Virus record (IMG/VR): IMGVR_UViG_3300021963_000748
Location: 1 to 21,671 of that record
Reading direction: 5' to 3' (one strand)
Source of the DNA: a virus
Length of the DNA stretch: 21,671 nucleotides
How positions within the stretch are numbered: the first letter of the stretch is position 1; each line of letters begins with the position of its first letter. The notes under the pieces were generated by a model. It saw nothing but the letters and a program-made list of their open reading frames with translations. It was not told the origin of the DNA and searched no databases. The position numbers were made by a program, and so were the translations under genes. Of the stretch, positions 7,883 through 21,671 are shown piece by piece.

Positions 7883-7885
7883 TCG

Positions 7886-8545
7886 ATGAAACTCATCACA
7901 GAACAAGTACAGGAAGTTCGCTACCTTACTGAAAAAAAGGAAGAAGGCGGCAAGGCTTATTATATTGAAGGTCCGTTCCTACAAACTGAAATAGCCAACA
8001 AAAACAATCGCCGTTATCGCAAAGACATCATGGAGCGAGAAGTACAGCGCTACATTAAAGAGTTTGTGGAAACTAAACGTGCATTTGGTGAACTTGGTCA
8101 TCCTGATGGACCTGGCATCAATTTAGATCGTGTAGCCATCATGATCAATAGTCTCAAAGAAGATGGCAATAACTACATCGGTCGCGCCAAGGTAATGACC
8201 GAAACACCCATGGGTCGCATTGTCAAGAATTTAATTGACGAAGGTGCGCAGCTTGGTGTTAGCTCTCGTGGAATGGGTTCATTGAAAGAAACAAAGGACG
8301 GAGTAAGCGAAGTTCAGGATGACTTTTATCTGGCAACTGCGGCTGATATTGTTGCTGATCCAAGCGCACCCGATGCATTTGTTAGAGGCATCATGGAGGG
8401 CAAGGAATGGATGATGGTTGAAGGTCGTTGGATGGCACGGGACTACGAAGAGGCTCGTGACTCCATCAAACGTACACGCTCAGGCAATCTGCAGGAGCAA
8501 CAGATCAAAGTTTTCCAAGATTTTCTTCGTAAGATATCAAACTAA
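7886..8545 (+). CDS. 21: Prohead maturation protease (T4 gp21-like)
   Basis: 219 residues, against 212 in T4 gp21. This serine protease (peptidase family U9/S80 type) sits in the prohead core and cleaves scaffold and capsid proteins after an L/I-x-E sequence. The fold landmarks are 'NRRYRKDIME' (41-50), the catalytic His in 'GELGHPDG' (H72) and the catalytic Ser in 'GVSSRGMG' (S126 or S127), all in the expected order. GGAG at 7874-7877 stands 8 nt before the ATG, which follows the previous stop by 3 nt. It is followed by a late promoter for its substrates, the scaffold and capsid. Confidence 0.96.
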   Translation: MKLITEQVQEVRYLTEKKEEGGKAYYIEGPFLQTEIANKNNRRYRKDIMEREVQRYIKEFVETKRAFGELGHPDGPGINLDRVAIMINSLKEDGNNYIGRAKVMTETPMGRIVKNLIDEGAQLGVSSRGMGSLKETKDGVSEVQDDFYLATAADIVADPSAPDAFVRGIMEGKEWMMVEGRWMARDYEEARDSIKRTRSGNLQEQQIKVFQDFLRKISN

Positions 8546-8552
8546 AGATTTT

Positions 8553-8560
8553 TATAAATA
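8553..8560 (+). promoter_or_regulatory. T4-type late promoter box before the scaffold gene
   Basis: An exact TATAAATA lies in the 43-nt gap between the protease stop and the scaffold start. It would give a leader of about 20 nt that contains the GGAGG ribosome site. This gives the abundant scaffold and capsid proteins their own gp55-dependent start. Confidence 0.85.
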
Positions 8561-8588
8561 ATTCGAAAACCTATTCTTAGGAGGCATA

Positions 8589-9848: not shown

Positions 9849-9875
9849 AAATTAATTCAACCCAAGGAGCAACAA

Positions 9876-11159
9876 ATGTTTCTATCCGAACAAGCACAAC
9901 AAAAATGGGCTGGTATCATCAACCACCCAGATCTTCCAGAGATCAAAGATTCATACAAACGCGCAGTAACAGCAACTCTGCTGGAAAACCAAGAAAAGGC
10001 TTTGACTGAAGAGCGTCAGGCTCTGTGGGAAACCACTCCAGCCAACGCCATCGGCGGCGGCTTCAGCGGCCAAGTCAACGGTTCGCCAAACACCAACATG
10101 GCTGGTTACGATCCAATTCTGATCAGCCTGGTGCGTCGTGCCATGCCTAATCTCATGGCGTATGATGTCTGCGGCGTGCAGCCCATGACAGGCCCTACCG
10201 GCCTGATCTTCGCCATGAAGAGCAACTACACCAGCCAGGGCAACACTGAGGCACTGTTCAACGAAGCCGACACCGACTTCGCTGGTTCCAGCCTCACAGC
10301 TCACGCTGGCGCCAACCCAGTTGGCAGTCCATACACCACTGGTGTGGGTTTTGCCACTGGCGATGCCGAACAACTCGGCGACACCTATGCGTTCAACCAG
10401 ATGGCATTCTCGATTGAGAAGACCACAGTTACTGCCAAGACACGTGCTCTGAAGGCCGAGTACACCGTCGAACTGGCACAAGACCTGAAGGCAGTGCATG
10501 GTCTGGATGCCGAAGGCGAACTGAGCAACATCCTGAGTCAGGAAATTCTGTTCGAAATTAACCGTGAAGTTATCCGTACCATCTATGCTGCGGCCAAGCC
10601 AGGTGCAGACACTGGTGCCACCACAACCTACGGTACCTTCGATCTGGATGTGGACGCAAATGGCCGTTGGAGCGTTGAGCGTTTCAAAGGCTTGCTGTTC
10701 CAAATCGAACGTGATGCCAACAACATTGCTCAGCAAACACGTCGTGGCAAAGGTAACTTCATCATCTGCTCCGCAGACGTTGCAAGTGCACTGAGCATGG
10801 CCGGTATCCTGGACTACACTCCAGCACTGAGCACCAGCCTCAACGTTGATGACACTGGCAATACCTTTGCCGGCGTGCTCAACGGTAAGATCAAGGTCTA
10901 CATCGACCCATATTCGGCTAACCTCAACACCGCCAACCAGTTCTATGTTGTCGGCTACAAAGGCACAAACCCATATGATGCTGGTATGTTCTATTGCCCA
11001 TATGTGCCGCTGCAGATGGTGCGCGCTGTTGACCCAAGCACCTTCCAACCAAAGGTCGGCTTCAAGACTCGCTATGGTTTAGTAGCAAATCCATTTACAA
11101 GTCTGTCAGCAAACAACAACACCTACTATCGTCGCGTCAAGGTCACAAACCTGATGTAA
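9876..11159 (+). CDS. 23: Major capsid protein (T4 gp23-like)
   Basis: 427 residues, against 521 in T4. It builds the hexameric lattice of the head and has the HK97 fold. The N-terminus 'MFLSEQAQQKWAGIINHPD' and the block 'PILISLVRRAMPNLMAYDVC' (about 80-99), followed by 'VQPMTGPTGLIFAMKS', are hallmark gp23 sequences. A probable gp21 cleavage site is L50-W51-E52, just before 'TTPANAIGGGFSG'. It fits the L/I-x-E rule and lies just before an IGG-containing sequence, as in T4; cutting there would leave about 375 residues. AAGGAG at 9864-9869 is 6 nt before the ATG. The gene follows the scaffold by 27 nt and ends in a strong terminator. Codon use favours C/G third positions more than its neighbours, as expected for the most highly expressed gene. 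Confidence 0.97.
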   Translation: MFLSEQAQQKWAGIINHPDLPEIKDSYKRAVTATLLENQEKALTEERQALWETTPANAIGGGFSGQVNGSPNTNMAGYDPILISLVRRAMPNLMAYDVCGVQPMTGPTGLIFAMKSNYTSQGNTEALFNEADTDFAGSSLTAHAGANPVGSPYTTGVGFATGDAEQLGDTYAFNQMAFSIEKTTVTAKTRALKAEYTVELAQDLKAVHGLDAEGELSNILSQEILFEINREVIRTIYAAAKPGADTGATTTYGTFDLDVDANGRWSVERFKGLLFQIERDANNIAQQTRRGKGNFIICSADVASALSMAGILDYTPALSTSLNVDDTGNTFAGVLNGKIKVYIDPYSANLNTANQFYVVGYKGTNPYDAGMFYCPYVPLQMVRAVDPSTFQPKVGFKTRYGLVANPFTSLSANNNTYYRRVKVTNLM

Positions 11160-11194
11160 GAGTTAGTAAGCTCCCAGTTATAAGAGAGCACTTT

Positions 11195-11221
11195 AAAGAG
11201 GACCTTCGGGTCCTCTTTTTT
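11195..11221 (+). terminator. Rho-independent terminator after the capsid gene
   Basis: A 10-bp perfect stem has left arm 11195-11204 (core GAGGACC), a TTCG tetraloop at 11205-11208 and right arm 11209-11218, and runs into T residues through 11221. The extra-stable UUCG loop and the T tract make it a textbook intrinsic terminator. It closes the late head-protein unit. Confidence 0.95.
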
Positions 11222-11226
11222 ACTAT

Positions 11227-11234
11227 GATAAATA
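11227..11234 (+). promoter_or_regulatory. Variant late promoter box (GATAAATA)
   Basis: GATAAATA differs at one base from the TATAAATA late box. It lies between the terminator and the gene starting at 11257, exactly where that gene needs a new promoter. A transcript from it would start near 11240, with a short leader holding the GCGAGGAC ribosome site. The placement is good and the box imperfect. Confidence 0.6.
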
Positions 11235-11256
11235 GTGATTATTGCGCGAGGACATC

Positions 11257-11826
11257 ATGGCCACCAACGTCACCCTAACCAGCAACGTAGTTGATAAAAC
11301 TACACCAACATCAGTCAATTATTTAAAACCCAATAGTTTTAAATTCTTGGTTGCAAAATTACCCAATGTTACCTATACGTGTCAGAGTGCAAATCTGCCG
11401 GCTTTGGGACTTGGAGTAGCAGTGCAAAATACTAGATTTGCGGATGTGCCACATCCAGGCGATAAATTAAGTTTTGGTGATTTCACCATTAGATTTCTAA
11501 TCAACGAAGACATGAGTAATTATAAAGAACTCTACGATTGGATGGTGGGATTGGGCACACCAGAAAGTGGCGCGCAATGGGCCAGAGTTTTACAGCAACG
11601 CAATCTCTACAACATCAATGGCCGTGATCCATATCCCGGTGTATTCAGTGATGCCACATTGCTGGTGTTGGACAGCAACAACAATCCCACTATTAGTTTG
11701 GAATTCAAAGACGCATTTCCCACCAGTCTGGAGGGTTTAGACTTCGATATTACATCAGCGGGCATGGAATATTTCATCGGCATAGCCAACTTCCGATATT
11801 CTCGATTCACAGTAAATACATTGTAA
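11257..11826 (+). CDS. Second tail-tube-fold protein (gp19 paralogue; possibly gp3 or other tail protein)
   Basis: 189 residues. The layout parallels the gp19 protein encoded at 5088: 'NSFKFLVAKLP', a 'SANLPALG' turn, 'VPHPGDKLSFGDFTIRFLIN' with 'YKELYDWMVGLGTPE', and a final 'YFIGIANFRYSRF' strand. It therefore probably has the tail-tube fold shared by gp19, gp54 and tail terminators. In cyanophage-type genomes the gene after gp23 is often annotated as gp3, the tail-completion protein, or simply as structural. I cannot decide between these, so I give no symbol. The ATG at 11257 is supported by GAGGA at 11248-11252; an upstream TTG at 11242 in the same frame is unlikely. It lies alone between a terminator and an early promoter. 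Confidence 0.8.
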   Translation: MATNVTLTSNVVDKTTPTSVNYLKPNSFKFLVAKLPNVTYTCQSANLPALGLGVAVQNTRFADVPHPGDKLSFGDFTIRFLINEDMSNYKELYDWMVGLGTPESGAQWARVLQQRNLYNINGRDPYPGVFSDATLLVLDSNNNPTISLEFKDAFPTSLEGLDFDITSAGMEYFIGIANFRYSRFTVNTL

Positions 11827-11828
11827 CA

Positions 11829-11857
11829 TTGACTCTTGATCGGATATCCATTATAAT
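11829..11857 (+). promoter_or_regulatory. Consensus sigma-70 promoter for uvsY-uvsW-gp55
   Basis: TTGACT (11829-11834), a 17-bp spacer and TATAAT (11852-11857) match the host housekeeping consensus at 11 of 12 positions. Transcription would start near 11864, about 20 nt before the uvsY ATG. No T4-type MotA box is evident, so it should be active early with unmodified host polymerase. Confidence 0.85.
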
Positions 11858-11883
11858 TATGGTATCTGAAATGGAGATATATC

Positions 11884-12321
11884 ATGAAATTGACCGAAAT
11901 TCAAGAAATGTGGGCCCAGGACTGTCGCATCGACGAAACCAATTTGGGTCGAGCCAGCGCCAACGTACCAGTGCTGCACAGCAAATATCTCAACCTTTTA
12001 ACCACCAGTCGACTGCAACTGCGTAAATCCGAAAGCGATTTGGCTCGGTTGCGTCGCACCAAATATCGATATTTTCGAGGCGAACTTACTCGCGAAGAAT
12101 TAACCGAATTAGGCTGGGAGCAATATCAGGGAGTCAAGCCCATAAAAAATGAAATGGATGAATTTCTCAGCACTGACGAAGATCTTATTCAACGATCCGA
12201 CAAAGTAGAATATCTTCGCACCGTGTATTTTCAACTGGAAAGCATACTCAAAAGCATCAGCAGCAGAACCTGGGACATCAAGTCCAGCATTGAGTGGCAC
12301 AAATTTACCAATGGCGTGTAA
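11884..12321 (+). CDS. uvsY: Recombination mediator UvsY
   Basis: 145 residues, against 137 in T4. UvsY loads the UvsX recombinase onto single-stranded DNA coated by gp32. The N-terminus 'MKLTEIQEMWAQDCRID' with 'LHSKYLNLLT' (32-41) matches T4 UvsY, as does the helical, Lys/Arg-rich middle and the C-terminal 'SISSRTWDIKSSIEWHKF', whose T4 counterpart reads 'AIKSRGFAIKHIQDMRAF'. GGAG at 11873-11876 stands 7 nt before the ATG. Its stop TAA shares one base with the uvsW ATG (TAATG), so the two recombination genes are translationally coupled, as expected from their joint role in recombination-dependent replication. Confidence 0.93.
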   Translation: MKLTEIQEMWAQDCRIDETNLGRASANVPVLHSKYLNLLTTSRLQLRKSESDLARLRRTKYRYFRGELTREELTELGWEQYQGVKPIKNEMDEFLSTDEDLIQRSDKVEYLRTVYFQLESILKSISSRTWDIKSSIEWHKFTNGV

Positions 12322-13802
12322 TGACCGATCTCGTAATTAAAAGCAAAAATCAAGTTTACTGCATAGTAGAAAGCGCCGATGTGGGTGTGATGCAGGAACT
12401 CAATGACTTTTTTACCTATGAAATGCCCAATGCGCGTTTCATGCCGCAGTACCGAGCTAAACTTTGGGATGGCAAGGTTAGACTTTATAATTTGTTTAGC
12501 CGTGAACTCTACGTAGGACTCATACCCTATGTCAAGGAATTTGCCGCAAAAAACAACTACACCGTAGCCGACGAACAACAGCCTTTGCCGCAACCTTACT
12601 TTGATGTCAGAGAATATGTGGAGGCTTTGAATCTCCATGCGCGCGGACAACCCTTGGAAATTCGCGACTATCAATTGGATGCGGTTAATCACGGCGTACA
12701 TCAGCATCGATGTTTATTGCTAAGTCCCACGGGTTCAGGCAAAAGCATGATCATTTATACTTTGATGCGCTACCATTTAGAACAAAATCGTCGCATTTTG
12801 ATCATTGTACCCACAACATCGTTGGTGGAGCAATTATACACTGACTTTCAGGACTATAGTTCGGCCAATGGTTTTCGAGTCAGTGACCACATACATCGAG
12901 TTTATGCTGGACGTGATCGTGATGCTGACTATGAGGTAATCATCAGCACTTGGCAAAGTTTGTATAAATTACCCAAACAGTATTTTGCTAAATTTGATGT
13001 TGTATTTGGTGATGAAGCTCACGGGTTCAAAGCCAACAGTTTGACCGGCATACTAAATAAAATGCCACAGTGCGCATATCGCATCGGCACCACTGGTACA
13101 TTGGATGGATTGAAAACACATCGGTTGGTGTTGGAGGGAATCTTTGGTGCTGTGTACAAGGTCACCACCACCAAACAGCTGATTAAAAATCAGACTTTGA
13201 CTGATCTAAAAATACAGTGCCTGACTTTGAAGTATCCAGATTCAGTGTGCAAGGATCTGCGTCAATTGACCTATCAGGAAGAAATGGACTGGTTGGTTAC
13301 TCATCCGGGACGCAATCGCTTTGTGCGCAACCTTGCCTTGGCACAGGAAGGCAATACTCTGGTGCTGTTTCAGTTTGTGGAAAAGCATGGCATACCTCTG
13401 CATGAAATGATTCAAGCCAAGGCAGCCGAAGGCAGAAAAATATTTTTAGTGCATGGCGGTACTGAGACTGCGGATCGCGAAGCCATCCGAGCCATCACAG
13501 AAAAAGAAGACAATGCCATAATTGTGGCCAGCTACGGTACATTTTCAACGGGGATAAATATACGTAGACTGCATAATATTATATTTGCAAGTCCAAGCAA
13601 AAGTCGTATTCGCAATCTTCAGAGCATAGGTCGTGGGCTTCGAACCAGCGAAGATAAACGACAGTGCAATCTCTATGATGTTGGTGATGACCTTAGCTAC
13701 AAAACTCATAGAAATTTTACATTGCTGCATTTAGCGGAACGCATTCGTATCTACAACGAAGAGCATTTCGACTATAAACTCATAAAGGTGAACATGCAAT
13801 GA
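12321..13802 (+). CDS. uvsW: Recombination helicase UvsW
   Basis: 493 residues, near the 503 of T4. UvsW is a superfamily 2 helicase that drives branch migration, fork regression and removal of R-loops at origins. Seen are the N-terminal domain with 'RFMPQYRAKLWDGKVRLYN' (39-57), Walker A 'SPTGSGKS' (135-142), Walker B 'DEAH' (231-234, where T4 has DECH), motif III 'TTGT' (257-260), motif V in 'IIVASYGTFSTGINI', and motif VI 'QSIGRGLRTSED'. The segment starts and ends align along T4 UvsW. I chose ATG 12321, which overlaps the uvsY stop; an in-frame upstream codon at 12294 lies inside uvsY and adds a non-homologous tail. The stop overlaps the next start as ATGA. Confidence 0.97.
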   Translation: MTDLVIKSKNQVYCIVESADVGVMQELNDFFTYEMPNARFMPQYRAKLWDGKVRLYNLFSRELYVGLIPYVKEFAAKNNYTVADEQQPLPQPYFDVREYVEALNLHARGQPLEIRDYQLDAVNHGVHQHRCLLLSPTGSGKSMIIYTLMRYHLEQNRRILIIVPTTSLVEQLYTDFQDYSSANGFRVSDHIHRVYAGRDRDADYEVIISTWQSLYKLPKQYFAKFDVVFGDEAHGFKANSLTGILNKMPQCAYRIGTTGTLDGLKTHRLVLEGIFGAVYKVTTTKQLIKNQTLTDLKIQCLTLKYPDSVCKDLRQLTYQEEMDWLVTHPGRNRFVRNLALAQEGNTLVLFQFVEKHGIPLHEMIQAKAAEGRKIFLVHGGTETADREAIRAITEKEDNAIIVASYGTFSTGINIRRLHNIIFASPSKSRIRNLQSIGRGLRTSEDKRQCNLYDVGDDLSYKTHRNFTLLHLAERIRIYNEEHFDYKLIKVNMQ

Positions 13803-14200
13803 ATATTTATTACAAGGCCGCAAAATTAACCACCGGTGAGTTATTGGCCTTTAAAACTGAGCAGGAAATCACCAGCAAATATTTAAACGAATCTCGCTAC
13901 ATAGATATTCAACATCCCGTGGCGTTTTATAGTTTTCGGTTTCTCGAGGATGGTAAATTAAATGAAGTAGTGGGCATGCAACCCTGGGTACCCATCACAC
14001 ATGACGAACATTACCCATTGGCTGTGCGAAGCATCATAACCATTGCCGACATGGATGCAAGAGCAATTGCCAGTTATGAACAGTACATCAGCAACGACAT
14101 GGAAGAAACTGAATTGGATTACAATGAGGGAGAAGAGATGGAAGAGATGGAAGAGGAAATAATAATGCTTGGTGAACTGGATCCGAATACATTGCATTAA
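13799..14200 (+). CDS. Unknown small protein with Sm-like pattern and acidic tail
   Basis: 133 residues, coupled to uvsW by an ATGA overlap. The first part, 'YKAAKLTTGELLAFKTEQEI' then 'YIDIQHPVAFYSFRF' and 'MQPWVPITHDEHYPLAV', has the strand pattern K-L-x-x-G-E ... P-V seen in small Sm-like beta-barrel proteins of other T4-like phages. That is an inference from pattern alone. From about residue 100 the protein becomes strongly acidic with runs of Glu and Met, coded in part by a 9-nt tandem repeat. Hypothetical genes of this kind often lie between uvsW and gp55 in exo-T-even genomes. It could bind RNA or polymerase, but no function can be assigned. Confidence 0.85.
   Translation: MNIYYKAAKLTTGELLAFKTEQEITSKYLNESRYIDIQHPVAFYSFRFLEDGKLNEVVGMQPWVPITHDEHYPLAVRSIITIADMDARAIASYEQYISNDMEETELDYNEGEEMEEMEEEIIMLGELDPNTLH
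14132..14158 (+). repeat. 9-nt tandem repeat coding an acidic tail
   Basis: GAAGAGATG occurs at 14132-14140 and 14141-14149, followed by the degenerate copy GAAGAGGAA at 14150-14158. It encodes Glu-Glu-Met units and is a likely site of slippage-driven length change in steps of three residues. Confidence 0.85.
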
Positions 14201-14268
14201 CTAACCACACCGTGATTATAGGTGGTGTGTCAATAGAAGTCAATAACAGTATCGAAAGTGAGCATAAC

Positions 14269-14841
14269 ATGGAAGCCGTGAAGCAGGGAAATCATTACAT
14301 CAATAATCAGGAATTTCTGGCAGCCCTGATTGCCTATCGAACCAGTGTCGAAGCAGCAGCGCAGAACGGTGAACAACGACCACAGGTACCGGAATACATC
14401 GGCGAGTGTTTCATTAAAATCGCTCGACACTTGAGTTATAAATCGAACTTCATCAATTATAGTTTCAAAGATGAAATGATCAGTGATGCCATTGAAAATT
14501 GTCTGAGTGTAGTCAGCAATTTCGATCCGGCTAAGAGTAAAAATCCTTTTGCGTATTTTACTCAGATTACATTCTATGCCTTTGTGCGACGCATCCAGCG
14601 TGAAAAGAAACAGCTGGAAACCAAGTATCGATACATTGATCAGTTGGACCTCAACGAAATCATTACGCAAGAACATGACAACGGCGATTTCCAAAATCAA
14701 TTCATCGACTATTTAAAAAATCAAATGGATGGCTACGACTATGCTCGTGTAGTCAGTTTGCCCGTCAAAGTTCAACAAACCCCCGAAGATGTTGCGCAGT
14801 TGGAGTTTCAAGAAGATATTGACAAACAGGATAAAAACTAA
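14269..14841 (+). CDS. 55: Late-transcription sigma factor (T4 gp55-like)
   Basis: 190 residues, against 185 in T4. It replaces the host sigma factor on RNA polymerase and reads TATAAATA late promoters. The core 'DEMISDAIENCLSVVSNFDP' (68-87) and 'KNPFAYFTQITFYAFVRRIQ' (91-110) is the conserved sigma region 2-like segment of gp55. The start ATG 14269 aligns 'HYINNQEFLAAL' with the T4 N-terminus 'NYVNNKELLQAI'; a GTG at 14212 in the same frame would add 19 residues absent from T4. The ribosome site is weak (GTGAG near 14258). The C-terminus, where T4 has a 'SLDFLYE' sliding-clamp-binding motif, reads 'QLEFQEDIDKQDKN', so clamp contact may be weaker or different. Exact late boxes at 3061 and 8553 are its expected targets. 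Confidence 0.96.
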   Translation: MEAVKQGNHYINNQEFLAALIAYRTSVEAAAQNGEQRPQVPEYIGECFIKIARHLSYKSNFINYSFKDEMISDAIENCLSVVSNFDPAKSKNPFAYFTQITFYAFVRRIQREKKQLETKYRYIDQLDLNEIITQEHDNGDFQNQFIDYLKNQMDGYDYARVVSLPVKVQQTPEDVAQLEFQEDIDKQDKN

Positions 14842-14847
14842 TATAAT
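14819..14847 (+). promoter_or_regulatory. Perfect sigma-70 promoter for queE
   Basis: TTGACA (14819-14824), a 17-bp spacer and TATAAT (14842-14847) match the consensus at all 12 positions. The -35 box is inside the last codons of the gp55 gene and the -10 box just after its stop. The start would be near 14854, giving a leader of about 15 nt with the GAGGTG ribosome site. Confidence 0.9.
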
Positions 14848-14868
14848 TAGGCTTTATATGAGGTGAAT

Positions 14869-15786
14869 ATGTCAAAAAAGATACGATATTCTGAAATTTT
14901 TTATAGTTTTCAAGGCGAAGCAGAGCTCGCTGGCAAACCCAGTGTTTGGCTGCGTTTCTTTGGTTGTAACCTGGAATGCAATGGCTTTGGTCAGAAGGAC
15001 CCCACCAATCCCGAAACCTATGTTCTGCCCTATGCCAGTTTTGATGTTAGCACTGTAAACCGCATCGAAGATTTGCCGGTGTGGGATCATGGCTGCGATT
15101 CAAGCTACAGCTGGAGTGCCAAGTATAAAAATCTAGCACACGATGCTGATGCTGCCAGAGTCTGCGATCTGCTGACAGATCAGCTACGGCATAAAACCAA
15201 TCCCCATGGCGAATGGGTGCATCCCGTAACTGGACAGGATGCACAACTTTGTTTTACTGGCGGTGAGCCCATGATGTGGCAAAAAGCCATGTTGGCTATA
15301 TTGCAGGAACTCAAGGCTCGAGGAAATCTTCCTCGCACAGTCACAGTAGAAACCAATGCCACACGCCCACTGACTGACGAATTGCAGGAATTCATCAACG
15401 AAGAATTTCCGCAGGACGGCGGCAGTCGTTGGCACTGGGCCATGAGTCCTAAACTTTGGACCGTGGCTGGCGAAAAAGATGCAGTCAAAGACGATGTTAT
15501 TTTTGAATATTCCACCAAAACCTTTAGCACATCGATTTTAAAGTTTGTTTGTAATGGCAGCACAGAATGTTGGTCTGAACTGGATGGGCATGCAGATCGC
15601 ATTCAACGCATGTTCGGTCAAGCTGGTTTTTACAGTCCGGATATTTGGGTCATGCCCGTGGGTGCAACCAAGGATGCGCAGGAAGATGCCATGGTTGCGA
15701 ATATTGCTGTTGAAGCCATGCAGCGCGGCTACATGGTGTCTACGAGGAATCATTGCTATGTCTTTGGAAACGTCATTGGTAAATAA
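14869..15786 (+). CDS. queE: 7-carboxy-7-deazaguanine synthase QueE, radical SAM enzyme
   Basis: 305 residues. QueE converts 6-carboxy-tetrahydropterin to 7-carboxy-7-deazaguanine using S-adenosylmethionine and an iron-sulfur cluster. The start 'YSEIFYSFQGEAELAGKPS' with 'VWLRFFGCNLEC' is the QueE signature, and 'CFTGGEPMMW' is the radical SAM GGE motif. The cluster cysteines are C33 and C37, and then C76 in 'GCDSSYSW', which matches the usual 'CDTxYxW'. The normal C-x3-C-x2-C is thus opened by an insertion of about 36 residues, which helps explain why the protein is longer than a typical QueE of 200-250. GAGGTG stands just before the ATG. The next gene starts 29 nt before its stop. With folE and the DpdA-like gene it makes a deazaguanine route. 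Confidence 0.92.
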   Translation: MSKKIRYSEIFYSFQGEAELAGKPSVWLRFFGCNLECNGFGQKDPTNPETYVLPYASFDVSTVNRIEDLPVWDHGCDSSYSWSAKYKNLAHDADAARVCDLLTDQLRHKTNPHGEWVHPVTGQDAQLCFTGGEPMMWQKAMLAILQELKARGNLPRTVTVETNATRPLTDELQEFINEEFPQDGGSRWHWAMSPKLWTVAGEKDAVKDDVIFEYSTKTFSTSILKFVCNGSTECWSELDGHADRIQRMFGQAGFYSPDIWVMPVGATKDAQEDAMVANIAVEAMQRGYMVSTRNHCYVFGNVIGK

Positions 15787-16021
15787 ACGCTGGACCGTTA
15801 CTGTTGAATATGATAATGAAAGCGGCGACTATGTTTTGCCGTTGAATGATGAAGTGCTCAAAGGATTGGATTGGCAGGTCGGAGATACTTTGGAATGGAT
15901 CAACAATCATGATGGTAGCTGGACTCTGCGAAAAAAACAAAATATATTGACATACATTAAAAAATATACTACAATACTACGTAATATGTTCAAAAGGAGC
16001 AACAATGGCAATGTCCGATAA
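15758..16021 (+). CDS. Small AbrB/MazE-like protein
   Basis: 87 residues. The first half, 'KRWTVTVEYDNESGDYVLPL' then 'DEVLKGLDWQVGDTLEWINN' and 'DGSWTLRKK', follows the pattern of short phage proteins with an AbrB/MazE swapped-hairpin domain: W-x-V-x-V, G-D-x-x-L-P-L, L-G-W-x-x-G-D-x-L-x-W. Such domains bind DNA or act as antitoxins, but many phage examples have no known role and no toxin is seen beside it. GAGGA at 15744-15748 is 9 nt before the ATG, and the gene overlaps the queE end by 29 nt. After 'RKK' a basic tail of about 27 residues is coded by the sequence that holds the folE promoter and ribosome site, so the tail may be an accident of overlap. Confidence 0.8.
   Translation: MSLETSLVNKRWTVTVEYDNESGDYVLPLNDEVLKGLDWQVGDTLEWINNHDGSWTLRKKQNILTYIKKYTTILRNMFKRSNNGNVR
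15947..15975 (+). promoter_or_regulatory. Sigma-70 promoter for the folE-to-glycosyltransferase unit
   Basis: TTGACA (15947-15952), a 17-bp spacer and TACAAT (15970-15975) match 11 of 12 consensus positions. It lies wholly inside the 3' end of the AbrB-like gene. The start would fall near 15982, about 23 nt before the folE ATG. No other clear promoter appears until 21330, so it probably serves the whole chain of coupled genes. Confidence 0.85.
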
Positions 16022-16676
16022 AATCCGTCAGCGCATCCAAGCCAGCGGAAAAAGATTTTTTAGCAACGACAACATCAGTGAATTCATCGAACATCCCCGT
16101 GAGTTGGATAAATTAACCGAAGAAGTAGCAAAAAAGATGGAGGCTGTGCTACAAAGCCTGATTATTGATACTGATAACGACCATAATACGCAGGACACTG
16201 CACACCGAGTAGCCAAGATGTTTGTGCAGGAAACCTTCGGAGGACGATATCGAGCTGCACCAAAAATTACTGCCTTTCCCAATGTCACACAATACGACCA
16301 ACTCTACGTCACCGGACCCATCACAATACGTTCTACGTGTGCTCATCACCTCCAAAATATTGTGGGGCGTGCCTATATCGGAGTCTATCCTGGAAAAAAC
16401 GTCATTGGACTTAGTAAGTTCAATCGCCTTGCGGATTGGATTGCCAGCCGTCCTCAAATCCAGGAAGAAATGACTGTGCAGATTGCGGATGCTGTGGAAG
16501 CCGAAACGCAGGCCGAAGGTGTGGCTATTTTGATTCAGGCCGAACATCATTGCATGACTCATCGCGGTGTCAAAGAACATGAGAGCGATATGACTACTGC
16601 CATCATGCGCGGTATATTCCAAAGCGACAAGAGTCTGAAAAAAGAATTCTACGACATCGTTGCTAAAATGAAATAA
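16005..16676 (+). CDS. folE: GTP cyclohydrolase I (FolE)
   Basis: 223 residues, the same size as E. coli FolE (222). It opens GTP to dihydroneopterin triphosphate, the first step of both folate and 7-deazaguanine synthesis. The zinc and active-site residues are present: 'STCAHHL' (C112, H114, H115), 'VIGLSKFNRLADWIASRPQI' (133-152) and 'AEHHCMTHRGV' (H182, C183). The usual CEHH is CAHH here. AAGGAG at 15994-15999 lies 5 nt before the first ATG; a second ATG at 16011 is possible. Standing with QueE and a DpdA-like enzyme rather than folate genes, it most likely feeds deazaguanine production for DNA modification. Confidence 0.95.
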   Translation: MAMSDKIRQRIQASGKRFFSNDNISEFIEHPRELDKLTEEVAKKMEAVLQSLIIDTDNDHNTQDTAHRVAKMFVQETFGGRYRAAPKITAFPNVTQYDQLYVTGPITIRSTCAHHLQNIVGRAYIGVYPGKNVIGLSKFNRLADWIASRPQIQEEMTVQIADAVEAETQAEGVAILIQAEHHCMTHRGVKEHESDMTTAIMRGIFQSDKSLKKEFYDIVAKMK

Positions 16677-16686
16677 GGAGATTGCT

Positions 16687-17004
16687 GTGAACAAATTACT
16701 TTCTGGTATGATGGACCGAGCCAATTTGATTGCGGTGGATCAAGACCCCAATCCTAAAAATGAAGCTCAACAGGACGAGGCCGCTAAGAATTTTCGGCCT
16801 AACCGTGCACAACGGCGAGCCATGAACAAAATGCGCACCGAAAAACGCTGGGATAAAAAACTAGCAGATCACTATGGCATTGGCAAGGCATTTCGCATGC
16901 ATGCCAATCGACACGGCGGTTCTGTGGAAATGGTACTCAGCGAACTGCTGCAGCAAGGCGCAATTAAATACCGACCCATGGCTGAAGATGGCAATACTAA
17001 CTGA
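16687..17004 (+). CDS. Unknown basic protein
   Basis: 105 residues, started by GTG at 16687 with AAGGAG (16675-16680) 6 nt upstream, which makes the non-ATG start convincing. The centre 'FRPNRAQRRAMNKMRTEKRW' (about 36-55) is strongly basic, followed by a likely helix pair ending 'VEMVLSELLQQGAIKYRP'. No cysteines, membrane segments or known motif are visible. The basic patch would suit nucleic-acid or acidic-protein binding, but I do not recognise a family. It follows folE by 10 nt and overlaps the next gene by 17 nt, within the deazaguanine-linked transcription unit. Confidence 0.8.
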   Translation: MNKLLSGMMDRANLIAVDQDPNPKNEAQQDEAAKNFRPNRAQRRAMNKMRTEKRWDKKLADHYGIGKAFRMHANRHGGSVEMVLSELLQQGAIKYRPMAEDGNTN

Positions 17005-17329
17005 CCCCTGGCTGGATGATATCTATGATCCAACACATCAATTAAATCACATAAAAACCACAGACCTAGCCATTGGTGGTAAAATAGTGCAGGCGCGATT
17101 TGACCTACCAGATATCGACCTTATGAAGTTTGGATCTGACCAAACATTTCGCGATGAAATAAAACGCCGGCTCGTCACTGAGCTGGTGCAATATCTGCTT
17201 GCCAATCGGTTTGTAGAATGCACCACCATGCGCATGGCAGAGTCTGGTCGTACCTCGGTTGCTGCTCGATTGTGTGTCACCCCCGATGAGCAAGTTAGAT
17301 TATTAAGATTGCACGGAGTAGAAAAATGA
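16988..17329 (+). CDS. Unknown protein before the exonuclease gene
   Basis: 113 residues, 'MAILTDPWLDDIYDPTHQLN' at the start. The ATG at 16988 lies inside the preceding gene and has no clear ribosome site, so translation is probably coupled. A longer upstream reading to 16874 is possible but runs antagonistically through the previous gene and looks unlikely. The middle and end, including 'FRDEIKRRLVTELVQYLLAN' (about 55-74), look helical. Its stop overlaps the exonuclease start as ATGA. No family is recognised and no catalytic motif is visible; the tight coupling suggests it may work with the exonuclease. Confidence 0.75.
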   Translation: MAILTDPWLDDIYDPTHQLNHIKTTDLAIGGKIVQARFDLPDIDLMKFGSDQTFRDEIKRRLVTELVQYLLANRFVECTTMRMAESGRTSVAARLCVTPDEQVRLLRLHGVEK

Positions 17330-17829
17330 TCAATGTAATGATTGACCTGGAAACCTATAGCACCAGAAGCAATGCTGCCATAGCCAGCATTGGCGCAGTA
17401 AAATTCGAAGGCAATGAAATCATTGATAAATTTTACTGCACCGTAGATCCAGCTACCTGCAAGGCTGCTGGTCTGCATTTTGAAAAGTCTACGCTGGAAT
17501 GGTGGAGCAAACAAAGCAAGGAAGCGCGTGATGCCTTGCTCAAAGATAATCTTCCCCTGGAAGAAGCTCTGACCAATTTTGAAGCCTGGTATGGATCAAA
17601 GAGTTTACCTACCTGGGGCAATGGTGCGAGCTTTGATAATGTCATCATGGAAAATGCCTATCGAGCCTTGGACAGAAAACGACCTTGGTTACCCTGGGAA
17701 GATCGTTGTTATCGCACAATGAATAACCTTGTGAAGATTCCCATTGACAAACGCGAGGGAGTATATCATAATGCTTTAGATGATGCACTTACTCAGACCA
17801 AACATCTGCAGAAAATTCTAGGAAGTTGA
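17326..17829 (+). CDS. DEDDh-type 3'-5' exonuclease (RNase T / Rv2179c-like)
   Basis: 167 residues. It should remove nucleotides from 3' ends of DNA or RNA using two metal ions. The motifs are Exo I 'MIDLET' (D7, E9), Exo II 'NGASFDN' (D104) and Exo III 'YHNALDDA' (H148, D152/D153), with 'AAIASIGAVKF' (17-27) as the usual second strand. The size and the 'HFEKSTLEWWSKQSKEARDA' segment resemble the small single-domain exonucleases related to mycobacterial Rv2179c that occur in many phages. It overlaps the previous stop (ATGA) and is followed after 1 nt by the DpdA-like gene. Whether it attacks RNA, host DNA or recombination intermediates cannot be told. Confidence 0.88.
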   Translation: MINVMIDLETYSTRSNAAIASIGAVKFEGNEIIDKFYCTVDPATCKAAGLHFEKSTLEWWSKQSKEARDALLKDNLPLEEALTNFEAWYGSKSLPTWGNGASFDNVIMENAYRALDRKRPWLPWEDRCYRTMNNLVKIPIDKREGVYHNALDDALTQTKHLQKILGS

Positions 17830-17830
17830 T

Positions 17831-19081
17831 ATGTTTGAATACGTTGCCAGCGGCAGCAGTTATGTTAAATTGATGTACCAAGAAAGTCTCAGTCCGCAGA
17901 ACATGGATTGGTTCTGTCGTACCTTTGGTGCCTTGAACAACACCAATAACCATCGTGTAAGCCTGTTGTACAATGCCTTTGTGGAAAAACGCATCGGCGA
18001 ATGGATGGGTGAACACTACAGACCACACGTACACAGCATTCATGCCGACAGCGGCGGACTGCAGATGATCACATTGGGTAAAACCATTACCAATGAACTT
18101 AAAGAAGATGTCTATGCCAGTCAAGCTAAAAATTCTACTATTGCCATGTGTTTTGATGTCATACCTGTGCGCACTCTGGATAGTGGACGTAGTGAACGGC
18201 TTGACCTTAGTAATCGGCGGTTTGATCGCAGCGATCTTGAACGCTGTGCCAGAGAAACAGGAAGAAATCTTCGACGACAGATAGATTATTTTCAGGAAAA
18301 GGGCAGTGCGGCTCGACCCATGTTGATTGCTCAAGGCAACGACTATGACTCTTATATGAAGTGGGTGGAGTATATTGTAGATGAATTAACGCCGGATCAT
18401 GTTCGAAAGATCGGCGGCATAGCCATGGGAGCAGCAGCTCTGGGCAAAGGCAGTTTAGAAGACATCAAACGAGCCTTTTATTATTCACAGCTTCCTGTAG
18501 ACTTGGAAAGTCGACATCTGCACTTATTGGGGGTGGGCTCAGTGTATCGTATGCTGCCACAGATTATTATGATGCAGAACGGAGTATATGATAATGTAGA
18601 AATGAGCTACGACTCAACTACTCATACCAGTGGTGTGGTTCAAGGTCGTTACTACATGAATGACACCACCTATACTTTTACTCGAGCCTTTGACGACAGT
18701 TATCGCATTGTGCTGGAAGACATCAAACGCAACTATCCATTCTATGAACTGGATGTAGACACTTTCTATGAATGTTTGAATCTCAGCAGTCGTAAATACG
18801 AAGCCAAGCATGGTAGTATAGATAACAGCCTGCAGACCTATGTTGTCTATGTTGCCAGTTGCATCAAGAACTTTATTGAACAGGTAAACCGAGTAAGTCA
18901 AAGTCGCGAAGCCGTAATGAAGTTTGCCAAAGGACTTGACAAGAATGCCTTTGATAGTTTATACTCAGTACAGACAGCCACAGATTTTGATCACTGGCTG
19001 CGACATGTTGGGCCCTACATGGACACACAACCTGTGCTGGAATATACCGAACTCAACACCTTGGAAGGATTGTTTGTATGA
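17831..19081 (+). CDS. dpdA: DpdA-like guanine transglycosylase (TGT superfamily)
   Basis: 416 residues. TGT enzymes exchange a guanine for a 7-deazaguanine base; the phage DpdA branch does so in DNA. Conserved TGT positions appear in order: 'ADSGGLQM' (D73), 'MCFDVIPV' (D109), 'IAQGN' (166-170), 'GIAMGAAALGKG' (196-207, the TGT 'G-x-A-x-G' loop), 'LLGVGS' (232-237) and 'SYDSTTHTSG' (259-268), where D261 would be the nucleophile. The C-terminal zinc-binding C-x-C-x-x-C motif of tRNA enzymes is missing, which favours a DNA-acting or otherwise divergent member. AGGA at 17820-17823 precedes the ATG. With folE and queE nearby, DNA base exchange is the best reading; a tRNA-acting enzyme is the alternative. 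Confidence 0.85.
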   Translation: MFEYVASGSSYVKLMYQESLSPQNMDWFCRTFGALNNTNNHRVSLLYNAFVEKRIGEWMGEHYRPHVHSIHADSGGLQMITLGKTITNELKEDVYASQAKNSTIAMCFDVIPVRTLDSGRSERLDLSNRRFDRSDLERCARETGRNLRRQIDYFQEKGSAARPMLIAQGNDYDSYMKWVEYIVDELTPDHVRKIGGIAMGAAALGKGSLEDIKRAFYYSQLPVDLESRHLHLLGVGSVYRMLPQIIMMQNGVYDNVEMSYDSTTHTSGVVQGRYYMNDTTYTFTRAFDDSYRIVLEDIKRNYPFYELDVDTFYECLNLSSRKYEAKHGSIDNSLQTYVVYVASCIKNFIEQVNRVSQSREAVMKFAKGLDKNAFDSLYSVQTATDFDHWLRHVGPYMDTQPVLEYTELNTLEGLFV

Positions 19082-19473
19082 TGATACGCCGATGGATTGA
19101 AGTAACTTTTCAGCGCGAAGGTATACATAAGTATCCTGCAGCCGCTACTGATCCCAACCTAGCCACTGGAGATGAATATGATGTATCGTTCCTTGCTCAC
19201 CCTCACCGTCATATTTTTCATTTTAGGGTGCGTATCAATGTCGAACACAACGACCGCGACATCGAATTCATCCAGTTCAAACGCTGGCTTGAAGGATTGT
19301 ATTCGAGCCAACAAAATATACTGCAGCTTCACTACAAGTCCTGCGAGATGATTGCCGAAGAATTAATTGAAAAAACTGCGGACCGATATCCAGGACGCGA
19401 CATGGTGGTGGAAGTATCTGAGGACGGAGAAAACGGAGCAATTTTACAATATTGGGCGAGGCCAGCATTATGA
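19078..19473 (+). CDS. Unknown protein with T-fold (QueD/PTPS-like) pattern
   Basis: 131 residues, coupled by ATGA overlaps to both the DpdA-like gene before it and the nucleotidyltransferase gene after it. The order 'FLAHPHRHIFHFRVRINVEH' (38-57), 'RDIEFIQFKRWLEGL' (60-74), 'KSCEMIAEELIEKT' (87-100) and 'VVEVSEDGENGAILQY' (110-125) parallels 6-pyruvoyl-tetrahydropterin synthase/QueD: His-rich strand for zinc, D-F-x-x-L-K helix, P-T-x-E-x-x-A helix, and the strand with the pterin-binding Glu. The loop that carries the catalytic Cys of QueD seems absent. It may be a degenerate or altered QueD, or only a structural look-alike. I therefore give no symbol. Confidence 0.8.
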   Translation: MMIRRWIEVTFQREGIHKYPAAATDPNLATGDEYDVSFLAHPHRHIFHFRVRINVEHNDRDIEFIQFKRWLEGLYSSQQNILQLHYKSCEMIAEELIEKTADRYPGRDMVVEVSEDGENGAILQYWARPAL

Positions 19474-20258
19474 GCGAAAAAGAAATTAAAAAAATAGTAT
19501 TAGTCACCGGTGGATTTGATCCTATACACAGTGGACATATTACCTACATGGATTATGCTGCCAAACTTGGTGATGGATTGATTGTGGGTTTAAACAGTGA
19601 TGCCTGGCTTTGTCGTAAAAAGGGTCGGGAGTTCATGCCCTGGGAAGAACGTGCAGAAATTATTCGACATCTGCGCGGTGTGGATGGCGTCATAGAATTT
19701 AACGATGATGATGGTACGGCATGTCATGCCATTGATCGAGTCCGTGAACTGTTTCCTGATCCCACAGTAGAAATTGTTTTTGCCAACGGCGGTGACAGAG
19801 TTGAAGGAAACATCAATGAACAAAATCATGTTGATCCCAATCTAAGTTTTAGATTTGGTGTGGGTGGCGAACATAAAAAGAACAGCAGCAGTTGGATTTT
19901 ACAGGAATGGAAAGCTCCAAAGACAGAACGTCCCTGGGGCTATTATCGAGTATTGCATACAGTTGGCGACCAGACCAAGGTCAAGGAATTGACTGTGGAG
20001 CCTGGCCATCGACTCAGCATGCAGAAACATCAACAACGAGCCGAACATTGGTTTGTGGCCGACGGTACTGCCACTGTATTAACCATTGATGAAAAATCTA
20101 CTGACGTGGACCTTGTGGGCATATATAATAAGCATGAATATGTGCACATACCTCGCACACAATGGCATCAGCTGTGCAACGACACTGACCAACCTTTGAA
20201 GATGATTGAAATTCAATACGGCGATAGCTGCATTGAAGAGGACATTGAACGCCGATGA
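19470..20258 (+). CDS. Cytidylyltransferase-like domain fused to ManC-type cupin
   Basis: 262 residues. Residues 7-110 form a nucleotidyltransferase of the HIGH family: 'TGGFDPIHSGH' (13-23), 'LNSD' (41-44) and 'PWEERAEIIRHL' (57-68), as in RfaE/HldE or TagD enzymes that join a sugar or alcohol phosphate to a nucleotide. Residues 153-255 are a cupin of the type found at the C-terminus of ManC: 'RPWGYYRVL', 'KVKELTVEPGHRLSMQKHQQ' and 'RAEHWFVADGTA'. It thus probably makes or isomerises an activated sugar. The ATG at 19470 overlaps the previous stop (ATGA) with GAGG upstream; a TTG at 19452 is less likely. It precedes a glycosyltransferase and gmd. Confidence 0.9.
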   Translation: MSEKEIKKIVLVTGGFDPIHSGHITYMDYAAKLGDGLIVGLNSDAWLCRKKGREFMPWEERAEIIRHLRGVDGVIEFNDDDGTACHAIDRVRELFPDPTVEIVFANGGDRVEGNINEQNHVDPNLSFRFGVGGEHKKNSSSWILQEWKAPKTERPWGYYRVLHTVGDQTKVKELTVEPGHRLSMQKHQQRAEHWFVADGTATVLTIDEKSTDVDLVGIYNKHEYVHIPRTQWHQLCNDTDQPLKMIEIQYGDSCIEEDIERR

Positions 20259-21340
20259 GAACACTTTATATTGTTGATATTGAGCCATTGGATAATCGTT
20301 ACACCAAACAATGGCAAACCTATTTTCCGCACATCGCTGAAGGACATCTTGGTGATGTTTTTAACGTGCAGAACATCAGCGGTGAAGCCGAGGGATATGA
20401 TGCTCCACAGACCGGCGCATTTTTTAATTTTGCCGGGACCTGTGAATACAAGGCCAGCCAGGCTACTAAAATAGCAAAGATGTTTGGCGACGGTACAGTG
20501 AAAAAAGGCGATTATTTTCTGTTCACTGATGCCTGGAATCAGACCGTACACTTTGTAAAATACATGAGCGAGCTCACTGGCATCAAAGTCTACATGGGTG
20601 GTATTTGGCATGCAGGCTGGTATGATCCCACAGACATTCTTGGTGCCACCATTGAGAATAAGAACTGGGCTCGATCCATGGAAGTTAGCATGTACTATGC
20701 GTTGGATCAAAACTTTTTTGGCACACAGCATAATTTAAATCTTTTTCTTAAAACTCTGGATTTAAGAAATGTAGAATCCAAAGAACAAAGATGCTTCAGT
20801 CCCGGAGTATATCCTTTGGAATGGATTAAAAATCTTCGCAACACGCAACCAAAAAAAGACATTGTTGTTTTTCCACATCGGTTAAATTACGACAAGGCTC
20901 CCTGGATCTTCGATGAACTTCGAGACGAAGTACAACGCACACATCCCGAAATTCAATTTGTTAAAACTCAAGAACAGAATTTCAGCAAAGACCAATACTA
21001 TGAATTTCTAAAATCCTGCAAGGTAATATTCTCTGCCAACAAGCATGAAAATCTCGGCATCGGAACTTTTGAGGCCATGAGTGCAGGATGTCTGCCCATT
21101 GTACCCAATAAACTTTCTTATAAAGAAATCTACGATGCACCGTTCAAGTATGAAGTGGATGAAGACTTCTACAGCAATTTTGCCATAGCCAAGCCTGCGC
21201 TGGCCAATCGCATCATTGACTTTGTTGAAAACTATGACAACTATCGTATTCATCTCGAAACTCAGTTGGATCGAATTCAATCTACCTTCTTCAGCGGCGA
21301 CAAAATGTTCAAAGACATTCACAGCTTTATTGACAAATAA
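20255..21340 (+). CDS. Glycosyltransferase-like protein (GT-B fold)
   Basis: 361 residues, coupled to the previous gene by an ATGA overlap. The C-terminal half has the GT4-type donor-site pattern: 'DIVVFPHRLNYDKAPWIFDE' (202-221) opening the second Rossmann domain, then 'SANKHENLGIGTFEAMSAGC' (260-279), which contains E-x7-E (E265, E273), and 'LPIVPNKLSYKEIY'. The N-terminal half (1-180) has strand-helix repeats and 'GDYFLFTDAWNQTVHFVKYM', suiting an acceptor domain. The acceptor is unknown: lipopolysaccharide, a virion protein or modified DNA are all possible. There are no membrane segments, so it is cytoplasmic. It ends where the gmd promoter begins. Confidence 0.85.
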   Translation: MRTLYIVDIEPLDNRYTKQWQTYFPHIAEGHLGDVFNVQNISGEAEGYDAPQTGAFFNFAGTCEYKASQATKIAKMFGDGTVKKGDYFLFTDAWNQTVHFVKYMSELTGIKVYMGGIWHAGWYDPTDILGATIENKNWARSMEVSMYYALDQNFFGTQHNLNLFLKTLDLRNVESKEQRCFSPGVYPLEWIKNLRNTQPKKDIVVFPHRLNYDKAPWIFDELRDEVQRTHPEIQFVKTQEQNFSKDQYYEFLKSCKVIFSANKHENLGIGTFEAMSAGCLPIVPNKLSYKEIYDAPFKYEVDEDFYSNFAIAKPALANRIIDFVENYDNYRIHLETQLDRIQSTFFSGDKMFKDIHSFIDK

Positions 21341-21358
21341 ACGCTGATATTCTATAAT
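21330..21358 (+). promoter_or_regulatory. Perfect sigma-70 promoter for gmd
   Basis: TTGACA (21330-21335), a 17-bp spacer and TATAAT (21353-21358) match all 12 consensus positions. The -35 box lies in the last codons of the glycosyltransferase gene. The start would fall near 21365, about 19 nt before the next ATG. Confidence 0.9.
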
Positions 21359-21383
21359 AAGTTTTTAATCATGGAGGAATGAC

Positions 21384-21671
21384 ATGCGTCGAGCAATTGT
21401 CACAGGTGTTACTGGCCAAGATGGTGCCTATCTTGCTAAACTTCTATTAGACAAGGGGTATCAGGTATTTGGTGCATACCGACACACCAGCGCGCCAAAC
21501 TTTTGGCGCATCAAAGATCTTGGCATCGAAAATCATGAACGACTGCAACTTGTAGGTTACGATTTGACCGACTTTAGCAGCATACTGCGCCTTATTCAAA
21601 ATGCCGTACCCGATGAAATATACAATCTGGCAGCGCAGAGTTTTGTTGGCCTGAGTTTTGAACAGCCATTG
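21384..21671 (+). CDS. gmd: GDP-mannose 4,6-dehydratase, 3' partial
   Basis: The first 96 codons are in the window and the frame is open at its right edge. Gmd turns GDP-mannose into GDP-4-keto-6-deoxy-mannose, the precursor of GDP-fucose and related sugars. The N-terminus '[20 protein letters not shown]' holds the NAD(P)-binding T-G-x-T-G-Q-D-G loop that distinguishes Gmd from most short-chain dehydratases. 'YDLTDFSS' and '[19 protein letters not shown]' follow as expected. GGAGGA at 21373-21378 lies 5 nt before the ATG and a perfect early promoter stands upstream. Together with the preceding nucleotidyltransferase-cupin and glycosyltransferase it suggests a nucleotide-sugar module. The rest of the gene is outside the window. 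Confidence 0.93.

What the first reader, a model, noticed from the sequence alone, without database searches (positions are those of the whole stretch)
19078..19473. Possible cryptic QueD: T-fold-like protein coupled to the DpdA-like gene
The order of a His-rich strand, a D-x-E-F-x-x-F-K helix, an S-C-E helix and an acidic E-x-S-E-D strand mirrors PTPS/QueD, the one step missing between FolE and QueE here. The loop with the QueD catalytic Cys looks deleted. Either this is a new QueD variant using another residue (C89 is the only cysteine), or a structural protein that helps the transglycosylase.
Basis: inference. Interest (0 to 1): 0.6.

Follow-up and report, generated by a model that had tools for sequence, protein, structure and literature searches.

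The report
QueD-fold phage protein replacing QueC
This small phage protein has the fold of the queuosine enzyme QueD but lacks QueD's catalytic residues, and the phage carries a separate ordinary QueD just outside the window; it takes the place of another enzyme (QueC) in a pathway that rewrites guanine in phage DNA, and usually travels with a sugar-attaching enzyme, so it may belong to an undescribed kind of phage DNA modification.

Summary
The ORF is real (phrog_17812, function unknown; at least 595 IMG/VR relatives). The claim that it is a cryptic QueD filling the missing step fails. A contig 99.99% identical to the window continues past its end and carries a canonical QueD 1.25 kb further on. 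QueD is also found in 10 of 11 isolate genomes that carry this family. All 193 distinct members have Leu where QueD has its catalytic Cys, and the Asp-His loop is gone; the three zinc histidines and the base-binding Glu remain. What the family replaces is QueC: 47 loci with this DpdA type and enough flank carry the family and no QueC, 3 carry QueC and no family, none both or neither. Best reading: a QueD-derived T-fold enzyme acting on 7-carboxy-7-deazaguanine (CDG) beside DpdA, probably removing the carboxylate (perhaps the predicted decarboxylase DpdL; paper not held). In the window's lineage it comes with a GT4-type glycosyltransferase and nucleotide-sugar genes, so a glycosylated 7-deazaguanine is possible. 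The chemistry is inferred.

The parts
19078..19473 (+). QueD-fold (T-fold) protein, phrog_17812 family, 131 aa: the finding
19126..19128 (+). codon of His17, equivalent of first QueD zinc His
   Evidence: invariant in 54 sequences; position inferred from motif alignment and the QueD fold match
19192..19194 (+). codon of Leu39, the position of QueD's catalytic Cys (4 residues before HxH)
   Evidence: Leu in all 193 distinct members; QueD has Cys
19204..19212 (+). codons of His43-Arg44-His45, equivalent of QueD HGH (zinc)
   Evidence: HxH in all 193 distinct members counted, HRH in 189; hmmsearch places it on HGH of 2dj6
19339..19347 (+). codons of Ser88-Cys89-Glu90, at the place of QueD P-T-x-E; only Cys of the protein
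   Evidence: SCE in all 193 distinct members
19420..19422 (+). codon of Glu115, equivalent of QueD's base/pterin-anchoring Glu
   Evidence: invariant; aligned with E of 2dj6/QueD
17831..19081 (+). DpdA-like guanine transglycosylase (416 aa), phrog_10773, with TGT-type DSGGLQ and SYDS motifs
14863..15786 (+). QueE (7-carboxy-7-deazaguanine synthase)
   Evidence: phrog_2076 E 7e-48
16005..16676 (+). FolE (GTP cyclohydrolase I)
   Evidence: PF01227 E 9e-49
19470..20258 (+). cytidylyltransferase fused to mannose-6-P isomerase-type cupin (nucleotide-sugar chemistry); ATGA overlaps with both neighbours
20255..21340 (+). GT4-type glycosyltransferase co-occurring with the family in most lineages
   Evidence: AlphaFold pLDDT 92.1 and Foldseek to BshA/MshA; co-occurrence
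21384..21671 (+). start of GDP-mannose 4,6-dehydratase, cut by the window's end
   Evidence: full copy in L198, PF16363 453 bits

Best explanation
The protein is a QueD paralogue that has kept the T-fold, the zinc-binding histidines and the base-anchoring glutamate but has lost QueD's catalytic Cys and Asp-His pair, so it is not the QueD step. The phage makes 7-carboxy-7-deazaguanine (CDG) with FolE, a separate canonical QueD and QueE, and has no QueC. This protein stands in QueC's place, between QueE and the DpdA transglycosylase. I think it most likely binds CDG at the zinc site and removes the carboxylate (a CDG decarboxylase giving 7-deazaguanine); DpdA then swaps the base into phage DNA. 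In the window's lineage a GT4-type glycosyltransferase fed by phage nucleotide-sugar genes acts in the same pathway, perhaps adding a sugar to the modified base. Shown: fold, residue losses and retentions, presence of QueD, exchange with QueC, operon with DpdA and GT. Inferred: zinc binding, CDG as substrate, decarboxylation, insertion into DNA, glycosylation.
For: Fold: AlphaFold pLDDT 92.9; Foldseek top hits E. coli QueD (E 1.5e-4, prob 1.00, TMt 0.70); VIA-align Z 11.8, 94 residues, 2.2 A with 2dtt. Profile-profile score with QueD 50.4, against at most 25.9 for 60 column shuffles, the reversed profile and 26 other family alignments from these loci and A4/A5; an independent QueD set gives 36.0. 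Residues: HxH, Leu at the Cys position and SCE in 193 of 193 distinct members. QueD present: L198, L014, 10 of 11 isolate genomes and 13 of 18 long IMG/VR records. Exchange with QueC: pf16, YB07, nt-1 and F86 have DpdA beside QueC and no family member. Loci with at least 3 kb on both sides: 47 family only, 3 QueC only, 0 both, 0 neither. L250/L256 are DpdA sisters (support 100/97) in syntenic phages: L256 has family+GT where L250 has methyltransferase+QueC. GT: 76/80 and 41/42 IMG/VR loci. Bacterial chromosomal GT-family-DpdA-QueD operon in Magnetospirillum.
Against: No experiment and no substrate shown. I know of no proven decarboxylase among T-fold enzymes. 7-Deazaguanine has no obvious handle for a glycosyltransferase, which fits badly with decarboxylation in GT-bearing phages; keeping or activating the carboxylate would fit GT better. 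The phiST-type clusters lack the GT, so the GT cannot be part of the core step. Vibrio phage D479 has the family and a divergent QueC-like gene. The loci compared share ancestry, so the counts are not independent: the tree forces at least two family/QueC changes, and several long branches make it unsure.
Confidence: 0.45

Rival explanations
1. Non-catalytic or carrier subunit: the protein binds CDG (or another 7-deazaguanine base) and hands it to DpdA, or adapts DpdA to a carboxylated base, so that dCDG enters DNA and the GT makes a sugar ester on the carboxylate.
For: ATGA-overlap with DpdA in the window, adjacency in many loci, GT in nearly all loci of the window's lineage, GT that folds like GT4 enzymes. 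A kept carboxylate gives the GT a handle.
Against: Invariant His triad, R60, E63, SCE, E115, D116 and E118 down to 32% identity look catalytic. DpdA of the same type works with QueC and without this protein in other phages.
Confidence: 0.25
2. A T-fold enzyme doing another change at the 7-position of CDG (e.g. reduction towards a hydroxymethyl group, or activation) that creates the group on which the GT puts a sugar.
For: GT and nucleotide-sugar genes; an alcohol-dehydrogenase gene near the family in 26 loci and a database protein in which the domain is fused to an alcohol dehydrogenase N-terminal domain (BFVD A0A6J5LEZ6). QueF, also a T-fold, is a reductase (established knowledge).
Against: No NADPH motif recognised; the ADH gene is in a minority of loci; the phiST-type clusters have the family without GT or ADH.
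Confidence: 0.15
3. New QueD variant that makes CPH4 with another residue.
For: QueD fold, zinc histidines and base-anchoring Glu kept; C89 invariant.
Against: Canonical QueD with Cys and Asp-His in the same virus, in the syntenic L014 and in 10 of 11 isolate genomes; 90 of 91 QueD ORFs in these loci keep CxxxHG[HYM] and xDH. Cys and Asp-His are absent here.
Confidence: 0.04
4. Partner subunit of the phage QueD: most of these QueDs have HGY instead of HGH, and this protein, with a full histidine triad, completes a hetero-oligomer.
For: HGY in 69 of 81 distinct QueDs from family-bearing loci; PTPS-type active sites lie at subunit interfaces (established knowledge).
Against: pf16 has an HGY QueD and no family member; 12 QueDs beside the family have HGH; the family tracks QueC, not QueD.
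Confidence: 0.06

Closest known systems
QueD (6-carboxy-5,6,7,8-tetrahydropterin synthase), E. coli 4ntk/4ntm; PTPS family PF01242
   Same: T-fold monomer, three histidines, base-anchoring Glu, same biosynthetic neighbourhood
   Different: catalytic Cys is Leu, Asp-His loop missing, extra conserved His57, Arg60 and SCE; coexists with a true QueD; no Pfam PTPS match by sequence
QueC (7-cyano-7-deazaguanine synthase, PF06508)
   Same: takes the same slot: last base-making gene beside DpdA2-type transglycosylases
   Different: unrelated fold and sequence; QueC uses ATP and ammonia; the two replace each other among phages
DpdL, predicted CDG decarboxylase (Cui et al. 2023, doi 10.1093/nar/gkad657; name and role recalled from memory, text not held)
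   Same: would act on CDG in phages without QueC, giving dDG
   Different: I could not obtain DpdL's sequence, so identity or non-identity with this family is untested
QueF / QueF-like (T-fold nitrile reductase / archaeosine synthase)
   Same: T-fold acting on 7-deazaguanine; weaker fold match (5k0p)
   Different: closest fold matches are QueD/PTPS; QueF motifs not seen
Phage DpdA/7-deazaguanine clusters with FolE, QueD, QueE, QueC (Hutinet et al. 2019, PMC6884629)
   Same: FolE, QueD, QueE and DpdA2-type transglycosylase
   Different: no QueC; this family, plus glycosyltransferase and nucleotide-sugar genes

Membership tests
QueD / PTPS-I | T-fold of the PTPS type | tested here: met
   profile-profile with controls
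QueD / PTPS-I | three zinc-binding histidines (H16, H31, H33 in 4ntm numbering) | tested here: met
   H17, H43, H45 invariant in A3; HxH in 193/193. Metal binding itself not tested
QueD / PTPS-I | catalytic Cys 4 residues before HxH | tested here: not met
   Leu in 193/193
QueD / PTPS-I | catalytic Asp-His pair (D70-H71) | tested here: not met
   loop absent; helix 60-76 is followed directly by the SCE helix from 89
QueD / PTPS-I | only QueD in its pathway | tested here: not met
   canonical QueD in L198, L014 and 10/11 isolate genomes
QueD / PTPS-I | CPH4 synthase activity | not testable with these tools
   needs assay or queD complementation
DpdL (predicted CDG decarboxylase) | sequence homology with published DpdL | not testable with these tools
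   paper and sequences not held
DpdL (predicted CDG decarboxylase) | occurs with FolE, QueD, QueE and DpdA and without QueC | tested here: met
   one ambiguous case, D479
DpdL (predicted CDG decarboxylase) | decarboxylates CDG / dDG in the DNA of carriers | not testable with these tools
   needs assay or LC-MS
QueC | PF06508 homology | tested here: not met
   no PF06508 match
QueF | closest fold and QueF signature | tested here: inconclusive
   QueF-like 5k0p appears with lower rank; the QueF signature was not scanned for

The most novel reading that the evidence does not exclude
Hundreds of phages carry a glycosylated 7-deazaguanine in their DNA: a QueD-derived T-fold enzyme, swapped in for QueC, prepares CDG; DpdA inserts the base; a dedicated GT4-type glycosyltransferase with phage-made nucleotide sugars decorates it. 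This would be the guanine counterpart of T4's glucosyl-hydroxymethylcytosine.
Probability: 0.3. Interest if true: 0.82.

Novelty: new variant of a known kind. Interest (0 to 1): 0.56.

Why it matters
The finding removes a supposed gap (missing QueD) and replaces it with a sharper question: what do phages make from CDG when they drop QueC? A widespread, unannotated QueD paralogue, QueD-fold but without QueD's catalytic residues, sits at that point and exchanges cleanly with QueC. If it is the CDG decarboxylase, it gives a gene for dDG-type DNA. If the linked glycosyltransferase works on the same base, it points to a new class of hypermodified, sugar-bearing guanines that would protect phage DNA from restriction. 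Isolates such as ACP17, X1, PA5oct and phiST make this testable by mass spectrometry of phage DNA.

Tried and rejected
Pfam and NCBIfam scans of single members gave only chance matches; sequence search of solved structures gave only weak hits, one of them a PTPS, 2dj6. Single-sequence IMG/VR scans with the phiST and Ahp1 members found nothing. 'Missing QueD' was rejected. Weak PF06508 matches in family-bearing records: three read by eye as NAD-synthetase-like, others as generic ATP-pyrophosphatases, and D479's as a divergent QueC-like protein. A QueD-partner role based on HGY QueDs was weakened by pf16. PADLOC gave no match for the window proteins or the Magnetospirillum cassette. Literature: Cui et al. 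2023 is not held; no held paper mentions DpdL together with DpdA. VIA-align lists many other T-folds (DHNA, urate oxidase, GTP cyclohydrolase) at Z 8-10; these show the common fold, not membership.

Full report
What is there. The ORF 19078-19473 (+) encodes 131 aa. It is the second gene of a run with 4-nt ATGA overlaps: DpdA-like (17831-19081), this protein, a cytidylyltransferase-cupin protein (19470-20258) and a glycosyltransferase (20255-21340), followed by the start of a GDP-mannose 4,6-dehydratase (21384-). QueE (14863-15786) and FolE (16005-16676) lie upstream. The window is a 21.7 kb virus record with T4-like structural genes. The protein belongs to phrog_17812, unknown function, E 1e-35. 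It is found in 26 isolate phage records and at least 595 IMG/VR stretches, and in 19 contigs of bacterial or archaeal genome assemblies.

Fold. An alignment of 54 diverse members (A3) gave an AlphaFold model with mean pLDDT 92.9, pTM 0.83 and order beta-beta-alpha-alpha-beta-beta. Foldseek's best hits in the PDB are E. coli QueD (4ntk, E 1.5e-4, probability 1.00, TM 0.65/0.70) and other PTPS enzymes. VIA-align gives Z 11.8 (94 residues, 2.2 A, 24% identity) with P. horikoshii PTPS 2dtt and Z 11.2 with 4ntk; other T-folds such as DHNA and urate oxidase follow at Z about 10. Sequence profiles agree: profile-profile score 50.4 (probability 95%) against a QueD alignment. 60 column shuffles reach at most 19.2; other gene families of the same loci reach at most 25.9; an independently built QueD set scores 36.0.

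Active site. By motif and profile alignment the zinc histidines correspond to H17, H43 and H45, and the base-anchoring glutamate to E115. The QueD Cys position (4 residues before HxH) is Leu39. Across 193 distinct members all counted have HxH, Leu at the Cys position, and SCE. QueD's Asp-His loop is missing: helix 60-76 is followed by the SCE helix from 89 with a short link. The exact superposition of side chains was not available to me; the mapping is inferred from alignment. The protein therefore fails two defining features of QueD.

QueD is not missing. L198 (IMG/VR 3300021962_011886) matches window 7831-21671 at 99.986% without gaps and runs on. After the dehydratase and a cytidylyltransferase it encodes a canonical QueD (L198 15089-15625, equal to about 22919-23455 on the window scale) with SHCSLLHGY, FDHT and an FEHNANSA end, PF01242 51.7 bits. 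The syntenic L014 (75% DpdA identity) has QueD in the same place. Whole-record searches found PF01242 over its cut-off in 10 of 11 isolate genomes that carry the family and in 13 of 18 long IMG/VR records. The window simply ends before queD.

What it replaces. Within family-bearing loci no QueC was found with five QueC queries, the only hits being in the control phage 9g. In whole records the only QueC-like gene is a divergent one in Vibrio phage D479. In contrast, phages whose DpdA is of the window's type but that lack the family (pf16, YB07, nt-1, F86) have QueC next to DpdA. Among DpdA loci with at least 3 kb on both sides, 47 have the family without QueC, 3 have QueC without the family, none has both or neither. 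A DpdA tree needs three label changes, at least two forced by well-supported branches; long branches limit it. The clearest pair is L250/L256 (DpdA sisters, 100/97; same downstream genes): L256 has QueD-QueE-family-GT-FolE-DpdA, while L250 has QueD-QueE-FolE-DpdA-methyltransferase-QueC. The family thus stands in for QueC, which acts on CDG, and CDG is the likely substrate (inference).

The glycosyltransferase. A GT was found in 76 of 80 and 41 of 42 IMG/VR loci and is always on the same strand. Its model (pLDDT 92.1) resembles GT4-type enzymes BshA, MshA and PglA. Nucleotide-sugar genes (GDP-mannose dehydratase, epimerase, DegT aminotransferase, cytidylyltransferases) and a phosphoribosyltransferase are frequent neighbours. 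In Magnetospirillum chromosomes, not far from an integrase gene, there is a compact GT-family-DpdA-QueD operon. Clusters of the phiST type (phiST, MA9V-3, Ahp1, D479, RHph_I1_18, Bakedbeans) lack the GT near the family, so the GT is an addition to a core step.

Mechanism. I favour CDG decarboxylation: the pathway stops at CDG, a guanine-like pocket and metal site are kept, and the retro-aldol machinery of QueD is lost. An enzyme named DpdL was predicted for this reaction (Cui et al. 2023; recalled, not readable here), and this family may be it. The chief difficulty is the GT, for which 7-deazaguanine offers no obvious handle. A carrier role with glycosylation of the carboxylate, or another change at position 7, remain open. 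Confidence that it is not QueD: about 0.95. That it acts on CDG or an equivalent 7-deazaguanine base in place of QueC: about 0.7. That it decarboxylates: about 0.4.

Verdict. Observation confirmed; interpretation right on fold and coupling, wrong on the step. The object is a widespread, unannotated QueD paralogue at the branch point between preQ0-type and other 7-deazaguanine DNA modifications.

Noticed in passing
window 20255-21340 and L014, L016, L018, L140, L150, L151: GT4-type glycosyltransferase plus nucleotide-sugar genes regularly linked to the DpdA cluster; possible glycosylation of a 7-deazaguanine base.
   Followed up: partly
L015:6317-6841, ACP17 gp122 and relatives in 95 of 141 loci: A roughly 175-aa protein without any Pfam match lies just upstream of the family in 95 of 141 loci; a further unassigned member of the system.
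   Followed up: no
L010 8326-8805, L012 8312-8782, L007 9558-10103, L009 9307-9876; L149 9998-10894: In phiST-type clusters a P-loop nucleotide kinase (and in phiST a MazG-type gene) sits beside the family; L149 reads as a family-MazG fusion.
   Followed up: no
L198 15089-15625 and 69 distinct QueDs: Most QueDs of these phages have HGY in place of HGH, and RQ in place of the AAH motif, so two of the usual zinc histidines appear changed although Cys and Asp-His remain.
   Followed up: partly
L143, L145, L141, L146 about 8817-12914: GT-family-DpdA-QueD operon on Magnetospirillum chromosomes, with an integrase gene 3-5 kb downstream and a CoiA-nuclease-like gene upstream in L143/L145; a bacterial copy of the system.
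   Followed up: partly
L176 3708-4514 (Vibrio phage D479): Divergent QueC-like gene next to a nicotinamide phosphoribosyltransferase-like gene in the one isolate genome that has the family and no QueD over the cut-off.
   Followed up: partly
BFVD A0A6J5LEZ6 and A0A8S5V119; L006 7221-8369; L012 7431-8309: Family domain apparently fused to an alcohol dehydrogenase N-terminal domain, to an AAA-type protein, and to other N-terminal domains.
   Followed up: no
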